A stretch of DNA of 64,000 nucleotides, from NCBI RefSeq assembly GCF_002305895.1, contig NZ_CP022203.1, positions 1,962,501 through 2,026,500 of the forward strand, in the 5' to 3' direction. Shown here piece after piece: positions 4,030-7,599 of this stretch (the stretch's first letter is position 1; the number at the start of each line of letters is the position of its first letter). The notes beneath the pieces are model-generated. The model was given only the letters and a program-made list of their open reading frames with translations, did not search any database and was not told the origin of the DNA. Position numbers and translations under genes: made by a program. Origin of the DNA: Corallococcus macrosporus DSM 14697 (GTDB taxonomy: Bacteria; Myxococcota; Myxococcia; Myxococcales; Myxococcaceae).

Positions 4030-4064
4030 CGCGGGTGGGGGCCTGGGCTCAGGTCCCCACCGCG
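4030..4064. terminator. Bidirectional terminator-like hairpin between convergent genes
   Basis: An interrupted stem GGTGGGG / CCCCACC (4034-4040 with 4055-4061) encloses a second stem CCTG / CAGG around the loop GGCT. CGC/GCG pairs extend the base after one bulged G. It lies exactly between two converging genes and its right arm overlaps the end of the gvpL/F-like gene. There is no long T-run on either side, so intrinsic termination is plausible but not certain. Confidence 0.5.
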
Positions 4065-4894
4065 TCCTCGTCACGCGGGCCCAGGCGCACGTCCACGAAG
4101 CTGTACGGCGCCCAGGGGCCGGTGAAGCGGAACGCGTAGGTGTCCGAGCGCGCCGCCAGGGAGCGCACCTTCTCCTCGAAGGACTCCAGCCCGGTCCGCT
4201 CGACGAGGAAGGCCGCGTTGAGCAGCATCCGCTCTCCCACGGGCGGGTGCTCACGCAGGGCCACGGCGCGTGGCCGCAGGCCCTCCAGCAGCGCGCGCAT
4301 GTCGCGCCCGGCGCGGTCCTCCACGGCGGACGCCAGCCGCTGTTCGTGCTCGGCCTCCGGCTCGTCGTCACGGCGGGCGAGCTGGGCGTCCTCCAACAGC
4401 AGCCGCTGGACCAGGTGCTCGCGGTGCCAGAGCACCTTGAGGCCCAGCTCCACCTTGCCCTCCAGCGCCTCCAGCACCCCGGCCAGCGCGTCATGGGCGG
4501 TGCGCAGCAGGTCGCGGACCTGGGCCTCGGAGGCCAAGACGGTGCCGAAGGCCGCGGGGAGCACGGTGTGCTCGCGGAGGAGGTGCTCGGTGACGCGCTG
4601 GTGGCCCAGCAGGTGCGCCCGCGTCGGGTCCACCACCCGCCCGGGCGCCTCGGACACCAGCGCCGCCAGGCCGGACTCGTGGAGGGCGTACACCTGCGTC
4701 GGGACGGTGCCCACGCCGATGCGCCCGAGCTCCAGGGCCGCCGTGGCGCGAACGATGCCGTAGAGGTACCGGGGGCCGTCCGGCGTCACCGGCTCCGGCT
4801 CGGGAGGTGGCGGCCGGGCGGCCTGGGGCGCGCGCTTGCCGCCGCGAGCCGCTCCCTTCCGGGGCCGTGTCGTCCGGGGCATGGTGCGCTTCAC
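4049..4894 (-). CDS. GvpL/GvpF family gas vesicle-type protein
   Basis: This 281-residue protein has a Lys/Arg/Pro-rich leader (about 40 residues). The GvpL/GvpF domain follows, recognisable by PRYLYGIVRA, the segment VSEAPGRVVDPTRAHLL, and HTVLPAAFGTVLASEAQVRDLL. Acidic helices and the closing FRFTGPWAPYSFVDVRLG follow. GvpF/L proteins bind GvpA early in gas vesicle assembly. The GTG at 4894 overlaps the response-regulator stop (GTGA); an ATG at 4882 is an alternative. It is the last gene of a four-gene operon headed by a tiny GvpA-like protein. No full gvp cluster is present in the window, so a role in making flotation vesicles is doubtful. A regulatory or structural reuse of the family is possible. 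Confidence 0.88.
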   Translation of the reverse strand: MKRTMPRTTRPRKGAARGGKRAPQAARPPPPEPEPVTPDGPRYLYGIVRATAALELGRIGVGTVPTQVYALHESGLAALVSEAPGRVVDPTRAHLLGHQRVTEHLLREHTVLPAAFGTVLASEAQVRDLLRTAHDALAGVLEALEGKVELGLKVLWHREHLVQRLLLEDAQLARRDDEPEAEHEQRLASAVEDRAGRDMRALLEGLRPRAVALREHPPVGERMLLNAAFLVERTGLESFEEKVRSLAARSDTYAFRFTGPWAPYSFVDVRLGPRDEDAVGT

Positions 4895-5301
4895 CTCGGC
4901 TGTGCGCCTCCGTGGGTGGCCAGCACGCGGCGGACTTCATCCACCAGCGCGTCCGGAAGGCAGGGCTTGGTGACGAAGGAGTCGCAGCCCGCGCCCTTGG
5001 CTTCGTCGGATTGGCCCGTCATCGCATGCCCCGTCAGGGCCACCACGGGGATGGTGCGCGTGCGGTCGTCGTTCTTCAGCCGCCGCGTCGCCTCCCAGCC
5101 GTCCATGATGGGCAGCGACAGGTCCATGAGGATGATGTCGGGGTGCAGCTCGAAGGCCTTGTCCAGCGCCTCCTGGCCATTCTTCGCCTCGGCCACGCGG
5201 AAGCCGGAGAACTCCAGGTACTCGGCGTACATCTCCCTGGCGTCCTGGTAGTCGTCGACGACCAGCACGAGGGGCTTCGGTGTCTCAGATGGGGTCGTCA
5301 T
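4891..5301 (-). CDS. Single-domain response regulator (CheY-like)
   Basis: This 136-residue protein is a receiver domain alone. An acidic pair is seen at DDYQDARE (residues 16-17), with the phosphoacceptor Asp60 in LMDLSLP, Thr90 in VALTGHA and Lys112 in FVTKP. No output domain follows, so it must act through a partner protein, as CheY or a phosphorelay shuttle does. Its ATG overlaps the stop of the histidine kinase upstream (ATGA), and its stop overlaps the GvpL/F-like start. That close coupling argues that the kinase is its cognate partner and that its target is close to the Gvp-like proteins. Confidence 0.93.
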   Translation of the reverse strand: MTTPSETPKPLVLVVDDYQDAREMYAEYLEFSGFRVAEAKNGQEALDKAFELHPDIILMDLSLPIMDGWEATRRLKNDDRTRTIPVVALTGHAMTGQSDEAKGAGCDSFVTKPCLPDALVDEVRRVLATHGGAQPR

Positions 5302-7403: not shown

Positions 7404-7407
7404 TGCG

Positions 7408-7599
7408 TCAGGCTCCGTGGGGATGGGGGGGAGGCGTTCGCACCTCCACGAACTTCACCACGATGGGGCGTGTGGACGCGGGAGGCCAGTCCTGGAGCGC
7501 CTGCCCGCGGACGTTGTCGTCCCAGCGCAGACCCCGGTCCAGCACCCGGTCCAGGACGTCGACGAGGCTGGCGCTCCCAGCCATTCTTTCCACGGGCAT
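7408..7599 (-). CDS. Miniature GvpA/GvpJ-like protein (63 residues)
   Basis: The N-terminal third (SASLVDVLDRVLDRGLRWDD, residues 9-28) closely follows the first helix and turn of gas vesicle shell proteins GvpA and GvpJ, where the pattern is SLxEVxDRxLDKGxVID. The canonical continuation, with its IE-x-A strand region, is missing. It is replaced by a short strand-like segment (RPIVVKFVEV) and a Pro/His-rich tail. The ATG at 7599 is chosen because GAGGAGC lies seven bases upstream and a longer frame to 7722 reads as unrelated Arg-rich sequence. It leads the kinase/regulator/GvpL-F operon. It could be a truncated relic, or a shortened subunit that interacts with the GvpL/F-like protein. Confidence 0.6.
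   Translation of the reverse strand: MPVERMAGSASLVDVLDRVLDRGLRWDDNVRGQALQDWPPASTRPIVVKFVEVRTPPPHPHGA

What the first reader, a model, noticed from the sequence alone, without database searches (positions are those of the whole stretch)
4049..7599. Two-component system embedded in a mini gas-vesicle-type operon
A 63-residue protein with the GvpA/GvpJ first-helix signature, but missing the strand region, leads an operon of a PAS histidine kinase, a single-domain receiver and a GvpL/GvpF protein. The spacings are four bases or overlaps throughout. Gas vesicle formation needs many more gvp genes, none of which are here. This points to reuse of Gvp modules, perhaps a signalling-controlled protein assembly, or a reduced relic.
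Basis: partly seen in the sequence, partly recalled or inferred. Interest (0 to 1): 0.7.

Follow-up and report, generated by a model that had tools for sequence, protein, structure and literature searches.

The report
Collapsed gas-vesicle operon keeping its sensor
A soil bacterium carries what is left of a gas-vesicle gene set, namely a worn-down shell protein, its helper protein and a built-in signalling pair, and selection still maintains part of it, which suggests a gas-vesicle helper has been turned to some other, signal-controlled job.

Summary
The four-gene minus-strand operon is real: 63-aa GvpA-like protein, 2xPAS histidine kinase, single-domain receiver, GvpF-fold protein. It is a gas-vesicle (gvp) operon reduced in place. 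Orthologous kinase-receiver-gvpF genes sit directly behind full-length gvpA in larger gvp clusters of Myxococcota, Rokubacteria and Acidobacteria, including one member of the same family. The mini protein is not "helix 1 only": it aligns with GvpA end to end, but strand beta1 has lost its hydrophobicity, beta2 is mostly kept, and helix alpha1 is under strong purifying selection (dN/dS 0-0.28). The window's complete genome has no other gvp shell gene and no GvpK over the cut-off. In the family, 52 of 96 genomes carry the mini locus; 39 of these 52 have no shell gene over the Pfam cut-off. Two Acidobacteria MAGs and one myxobacterial MAG have separately shrunk to kinase-receiver-GvpF/L, with or without gvpA. 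In haloarchaea alpha1 alone binds GvpF. Best model (inferred, untested): kinase and receiver govern the GvpF-like protein, whose retained ligand is the alpha1 peptide, with no vesicle. Against a strict four-gene unit: G044 lacks the mini, G080 lacks mini and GvpF. New variant of a known kind.

The parts
7408..7599 (-). Mini protein, 63 aa: an eroded GvpA homolog (alpha1 kept, beta1 lost its hydrophobicity, beta2 kept)
7411..7416 (-). GGAGCC: Shine-Dalgarno-like site of the kinase gene, inside the last two mini codons
   Evidence: GGAG just before the mini stop in 46 of 46 mini loci, then a GTG or TTG 4-5 nt after the stop
5298..7403 (-). Histidine kinase, 701 aa, two PAS domains, HisKA, HATPase; ortholog of the kinase of larger gvp clusters
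4891..5301 (-). Single-domain response regulator, 136 aa, no output domain
   Evidence: phosphorylation-site motifs in 45 of 45 called receivers
4049..4894 (-). GvpF-like protein, 281 aa; start codon uncertain (N-terminal ~40 residues poorly conserved)
   Evidence: PF06386 209.8 bits; profile hits GvpF structures 6l5d and 4qsg; model pLDDT 86.5 and Foldseek to the same; tree
7687..7713 (.). Dyad CGAACA-N15-TGTTCG between the divergent mini operon and the DAO-Rieske gene; operator-like, function unknown
   Evidence: RACA-N15-TGTT within 260 bp upstream of the mini in 46 of 46 loci against 0.09 expected from first-order resampling; 0 of 40 full gvp clusters upstream of gvpJ (pattern widened, where the stricter form gave 31 of 46)

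Best explanation
This is the in-place remnant of a gas-vesicle operon that contained a two-component system (gvpJ-gvpA-HK-RR-gvpF-gvpG-arsA-gvpL-gvpS-gvpF-gvpK). The vesicle-building genes were lost and the segment gvpA-HK-RR-gvpF was kept and put to another use. Shown by sequence: homology, orthology, synteny, loss of the wall-forming strand, selection on helix alpha1. Inferred: the kinase (no transmembrane domain among its Pfam hits) senses a cytoplasmic signal and phosphorylates the lone receiver; the receiver has no output domain, so it acts by contact, most simply on the GvpF-like protein encoded next to it; that protein's remaining ligand is the alpha1 helix of the mini protein, the piece of GvpA that suffices for GvpF binding in haloarchaea. 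The mini would then be a soluble decoy or switch peptide at the client site of GvpF, and the freed or bound GvpF-like protein (target unknown) would be the output.
For: Ancestry: kinases of larger gvp clusters align with this one at 47-54% over about 680-715 columns, the best in-genome paralog only 42% over 275 residues; of 80 kinase loci, 19 are mini-type, and 50 of the other 61 carry at least two further gvp gene types; GvpF tree; shared neighbours at the locus, and a full cluster in the same family (G045). Function kept: helix dN/dS 0-0.28 against 0.55-0.90 in the middle of the mini, HK 0.24-0.31, RR 0.08-0.26, LF 0.35-0.53; mini in 27 of 27 genomes of the genus, 19 of them without a shell gene. 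Ligand: GvpF binds GvpA residues 1-22 more strongly than whole GvpA (split-GFP rf 41 vs 20; PMC7688916, passages); GvpF is the primary, chaperone-like partner of GvpA2 (PMC11445434, passages); the R15 and G20 equivalents are kept in 46 of 46 minis. Separate reductions to the same core in L234, L239 and L242.
Against: G044 keeps HK-RR-GvpF without any mini; G080 keeps RR and a kinase lacking its PAS part, without mini or GvpF, so the four genes are not inseparable. GvpF-contact residues in beta1/beta2 (R28, E40) are mostly lost. LF evolves faster than HK and RR. Synonymous change is also lower in the helix than in the middle, so a DNA- or RNA-level constraint may add to it. Nothing tests contact of receiver and GvpF. 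The structure model of the mini is low-confidence (pLDDT 60).
Confidence: 0.42

Rival explanations
1. Slowly decaying relic: gvp genes are being lost; kinase and receiver survive through an unrelated signalling role, and mini and GvpF-like are passengers.
For: Middle of the mini near neutral (dN/dS 0.55-0.90), LF relaxed (0.35-0.53), mini lost in G044, mini and GvpF lost in G080, gvpJ broken in L234 and L239.
Against: Helix dN/dS 0-0.28 in five clades; intact mini in 46 of 46 loci and mini plus GvpF in 27 of 27 genomes of the genus.
Confidence: 0.25
2. The mini works as a leader ORF: its translation delivers ribosomes to the kinase start, and its protein matters little.
For: The kinase ribosome site lies in the mini's last codons, 4-5 nt before GTG/TTG, in 46 of 46; the middle of the mini is near neutral in sequence while its frame is kept.
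Against: Amino-acid-level constraint on alpha1, across genera, is not needed for coupling.
Confidence: 0.15
3. The mini still assembles, into a small non-vesicle polymer nucleated by the GvpF-like protein.
For: GvpA ancestry; beta2 kept in 44 of 46.
Against: Hydropathy of the beta1 region -1.52 to -0.18 against 1.34-1.37 in gvpA; beta2 absent in L084 and L121.
Confidence: 0.06
4. The locus regulates a true gas-vesicle cluster elsewhere in the genome.
For: 8 of 27 genomes of the genus carry a separate cluster with full GvpA.
Against: The window's complete genome has none; 39 of 52 mini genomes have no shell gene over the cut-off.
Confidence: 0.03

Closest known systems
gvp clusters with an embedded kinase-receiver pair (Rokubacteria, Acidobacteria, Myxococcota MAGs; e.g. 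L065, L196, L197, L206; found here)
   Same: Same order gvpA-HK-RR-gvpF; orthologous kinase over nearly its full length.
   Different: They keep full-length gvpA and gvpJ and most of gvpG, arsA, gvpL, gvpS, gvpF, gvpK; the window keeps none of these but an eroded gvpA and one gvpF.
GvpA-GvpF interaction of Halobacterium (PMC7688916, passages read)
   Same: A GvpA alpha1 peptide plus a GvpF-family protein are the minimal binding pair.
   Different: There GvpA builds the vesicle wall; here the wall strand is eroded, and binding is not tested.
GvrA/B/C regulators of the Serratia ATCC 39006 gvp locus (PMC4982088, passages read)
   Same: Regulators encoded inside a gvp locus.
   Different: GvrA is an NtrC-family transcription regulator; here a PAS kinase plus a receiver without DNA-binding domain.
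Partly degenerated gvp cluster of Anabaena PCC 7120 (PMC7204071, abstract and outline read); GvpF structure 6l5d
   Same: A degenerated gvp cluster; its GvpF is the closest solved fold.
   Different: That cluster still makes irregular vesicles in E. coli; this one lacks most parts.

Membership tests
Gas-vesicle gene cluster (functional) | Full-length hydrophobic GvpA plus the conserved accessory set (gvpF, G, K, L, N and others) | tested here: not met
   Only an eroded gvpA and one gvpF; PF00741, PF06386 and PF05121 searched in the complete genome; GvpG, GvpN and ArsA not searched genome-wide
GvpA (PF00741) shell protein | Score over the curated family cut-off | tested here: not met
   17.7 vs 25 bits; NCBIfam 24.2 vs 100 bits
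GvpA (PF00741) shell protein | Homology along alpha1-beta1-beta2 | tested here: met
   Mini profile to 8gbs, E 8.2e-12, residues 1-63; alignment
GvpA (PF00741) shell protein | Hydrophobic beta1 of the wall | tested here: not met
   Mean hydropathy -0.87 in 46 minis against 1.36 in 6 gvpA
GvpF/GvpL (PF06386) | Family score and fold | tested here: met
   209.8 bits; 6l5d E 4.9e-32 by profile and E 1.6e-16 by Foldseek
GvpF/GvpL (PF06386) | Binds GvpA | not testable with these tools
   No complex prediction or assay at hand
Two-component system | Catalytic and phosphoacceptor motifs of kinase and receiver | tested here: met
   Domains; strict motif patterns in 40 of 46 kinases (of the six misses, five keep the G2 box and were checked further; the sixth, L109, is the fused MAG frame) and 45 of 45 called receivers
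Two-component system | Phosphotransfer from this kinase to this receiver | not testable with these tools
   Only adjacency, overlap, co-retention and one fused HK-RR frame in a MAG (L109)
Gvp-associated HK-RR pair (defined here) | Kinase orthologous over its length, next to receiver and gvpF | tested here: met

The most novel reading that the evidence does not exclude
A gas-vesicle chaperone (GvpF) has become the output of a signalling pathway without any vesicle: a receiver without output domain acts on GvpF, and a former shell protein, reduced to its GvpF-binding helix, is the switch ligand. The same core (kinase, receiver, GvpF/L, with or without gvpA) was retained separately in Myxococcaceae, in two Acidobacteria and in another myxobacterial MAG, so control of GvpF by the two-component system was probably already part of vesicle assembly in several phyla.
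Probability: 0.3. Interest if true: 0.8.

Novelty: new variant of a known kind. Interest (0 to 1): 0.62.

Why it matters
If right, it shows which part of a gas-vesicle operon keeps value after the organelle is gone, and it makes two questions testable in a model genus (Myxococcus): what GvpF-like proteins do apart from handling GvpA, and how a receiver with no output domain could control assembly. It also points to a kinase-receiver pair inside gvp clusters of Rokubacteria, Acidobacteria and Myxococcota. My searches of the held open-access papers listed no paper whose title or shown abstract start describes such a pair or a gvp locus in myxobacteria. Only six papers were read, each in part; one of them, PMC2963123, mentions a Myxococcus ArsA homolog that is not associated with gas-vesicle genes.

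Tried and rejected
Rejected: a complete gvp cluster elsewhere in this genome. Rejected: the mini as a chance ORF. Rejected: recent recruitment of a generic kinase.

Not used or weak: the mini structure prediction (pLDDT 60). The receiver tree has few supported forks, most paralog rows were read in a wrong frame, and the closest paralog (L156, 65% identity) did not enter; it is not used for orthology. In the GvpF tree the joint clade of mini-locus and gvp-cluster gvpF holds one long foreign branch and is not starred, and G044's copy falls with the full-cluster gvpF. My first motif searches for minis missed some; a tblastn pass recovered them. A first dyad pattern (AACA) hit 31 of 46; I widened it to RACA after seeing the rest (46 of 46), so that count is post hoc. 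dN/dS is Nei-Gojobori on pooled pairs, without correction for codon bias or shared ancestry; it used 40 of 46 minis and, for HK, RR and LF, 32 of 46 loci. Neighbourhoods rest on a simple GC-based gene caller of mine plus BLAST to window and L065 proteins. Genes can be missed in MAGs (L234, L239, L242); the genes next to the core are unrelated there. The Fisher test ignores shared ancestry and is not used.

Full report
WHAT IS THERE. On the minus strand four ORFs run mini (7408-7599), histidine kinase (5298-7403), single-domain receiver (4891-5301) and GvpF-like protein (4049-4894). Mini and kinase are 4 nt apart; the other two junctions are 4-nt overlaps. Pfam gives two PAS domains, HisKA and HATPase in the kinase, a lone receiver, and GvpL_GvpF at 209.8 bits. 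The mini hits PF00741 only over helix 1 and below the cut-off (17.7 vs 25 bits). The genome is one contig of 8.97 Mb (completeness 100 in the tool's table) and holds no other GvpA-family gene, one GvpL/F over the cut-off and no GvpK over the cut-off. The nearest named relatives are Myxococcus species, so the window is most likely Myxococcus; its own name is not given.

THE MINI PROTEIN. In the family, 54 of 96 genomes match the mini; I count 52, because G045 is a full gvpA and G093 is weak (E 0.007) with a stop inside. I fetched stretches for 45 of these genomes (six were not fetched: G023, G026, G037, G062, G074, G078) and added the window: all 46 have an intact frame. Aligned with the gvpA of larger clusters the order of elements is the same: alpha1 kept, beta1 turned into a variable polar stretch, beta2 recognisable in 44 of 46. 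A profile of 16 minis matches solved GvpA chains 8gbs (E 8.2e-12, residues 1-63 without gaps) and 7r1c (E 4.9e-8). Hydropathy of the beta1 region falls from 1.34..1.37 in six gvpA to -1.52..-0.18 in 46 minis. Of the GvpA residues reported to matter for GvpF contact in Halobacterium, R15 and G20 are kept in 46 of 46, K19 is R (37) or Q (9), D24 is D or E in 43; R28 (14 of 46) and E40 (10 of 46) are mostly lost (contacts from PMC7688916). Pooled Nei-Gojobori dN/dS is 0-0.28 for the alpha1 part in five clades and 0.55-0.90 for the middle; beta2 is uneven (0.13-1.28) and the tail 0.23-0.47. For scale HK is 0.24-0.31, RR 0.08-0.26 and LF 0.35-0.53 in four clades. The constant end of the mini is largely explained by DNA: it encodes a GGAG ribosome site for the kinase in 46 of 46 loci.

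WHERE IT COMES FROM. The kinase family was searched by its N-terminal region in the collection of 84,980 species genomes; 101 relatives were found and the best 80 kept. Nineteen are mini-type Myxococcaceae. Of the other 61, 50 have at least two further gvp gene types in the fetched stretch, typically in the order gvpJ-gvpA-HK-RR-gvpF-gvpG-arsA-gvpL-gvpS-gvpF-gvpK, in MAGs labelled Rokubacteria, Acidobacteria and Deltaproteobacteria/Myxococcota. The other 11 (L208, L224, L225, L234, L235, L239, L242, L243, L246, L249, L250) have one or none: several are cut by the contig end, L225 appears to be G044 (its contig has the same length), and L234, L239 and L242 are treated below. In Gemmatimonadota the kinase stands after gvpA at the end of the cluster, without a receiver called next to it. 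Full-length gvp-cluster kinases align with the window kinase over nearly their whole length at 47-54%, whereas the best paralog in the window's genome matches 42% over 275 catalytic residues. The mini-locus GvpF-like proteins lie next to the gvpF that follows the receiver in a tree of 76 GvpF/L proteins, apart from the other gvpL and gvpF lineages; the joining forks are supported but not starred, and G044's copy falls with the full-cluster gvpF. Reduction happened in place: 43 of the 46 mini loci carry at least one of the same gld-type ABC genes in the fetched stretch (counted by eye), G044's HK-RR-gvpF lies beside those gld genes, and G045, of the same family, still has gvpJ-gvpA-HK-RR-gvpF-gvpG-gvpL with a shared neighbour gene in the stretch and a GvpK on another contig.

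CO-RETENTION, WITH THE EXCEPTIONS. The kinase family occurs in 55 of 96 family genomes: the 52 with the mini, plus G045 (full cluster), G044 and G080. All 52 mini genomes have GvpF/L. G044 has HK, RR and GvpF but no mini in the 240 bp before the next gene. G080 keeps RR and a kinase without its PAS region, and neither mini nor GvpF (one search lists no GvpL/F hit for it). In seven genomes of genus g8 and in G043 the kinase match starts near residue 171 of the window kinase. Thirty-nine of the 52 mini genomes, and 19 of 27 in the window's genus, have no shell gene over the Pfam cut-off. So the locus persists without vesicles, but it is not an indivisible unit.

SEPARATE REDUCTIONS. Two Acidobacteria MAGs (L234, L239) keep gvpA-HK-RR-gvpF with gvpJ broken upstream and unrelated genes following (L234 also has a gvpG-like stretch); each has one GvpL/F in the whole MAG and no GvpK. 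They share neighbour genes and may represent one event. Myxococcales MAG L242 has HK-RR-GvpL with no gvpA in the stretch, one GvpL/F in the MAG and no GvpK. MAG incompleteness is a caveat, and selection was not tested in these.

MECHANISM. Shown: ancestry, selection on alpha1, erosion of the wall strand, intact kinase and receiver motifs (strict patterns in 40 of 46 kinases and 45 of 45 called receivers), GvpF fold of the model (pLDDT 86.5; Foldseek to 6l5d and 4qsg). From published work on other organisms: alpha1 alone binds GvpF (PMC7688916), and GvpF is the primary, chaperone-like partner of GvpA2 (PMC11445434). Inferred: the kinase signals through the receiver to the GvpF-like protein, and the mini is its alpha1 ligand. 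The weakest link is receiver to GvpF; G080 (pair without GvpF) and G044 (no mini) weaken a strict version. The main rival is slow decay, for which the near-neutral middle of the mini, the relaxed LF and the exceptions speak; the constrained helix and the universal retention in the genus speak against it.

NOVELTY. All parts belong to known families; the combination, the reduced state and its retention are not described in the papers I found (searches; most subscription papers are not held). I rate it a new variant of a known kind.

Noticed in passing
window 7687-7713: Inverted repeat CGAACA-N15-TGTTCG upstream of the mini; RACA-N15-TGTT with constant spacing in 46 of 46 mini loci, with matching changes on both arms in some genera (CCAACA...TGTTGG). 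Could be an operator of the mini operon or of the divergent gene; absent upstream of gvpJ in 40 of 40 full clusters.
   Followed up: partly
G000 contig 1:617783-618148 (L156): A second stand-alone receiver, 65% identical to the operon's receiver, far above all other in-genome receivers (next 42%), followed by a Ser/Thr kinase gene.
   Followed up: no
L073, L075, L079, L080, L122-L124 (genus g8 and G043): The kinase aligns only from about residue 171 of the window kinase: its N-terminal region is lost or diverged while both PAS domains stay.
   Followed up: partly
L078 (G077), L076 (G040), L074 (G043): Separate gvp gene sets elsewhere in genomes that also have the mini locus; their gvpF/L belong to other lineages.
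   Followed up: partly
L109 / L187 (G027): Kinase and receiver are read in one open frame of 747 aa in this MAG; a real fusion or an assembly error.
   Followed up: no
   Followed up: no
window 325-4027: GldF/GldG-like ABC transporter genes and a DUF4340-like gene run towards the operon from the other strand and are syntenic through most of the family.
   Followed up: no
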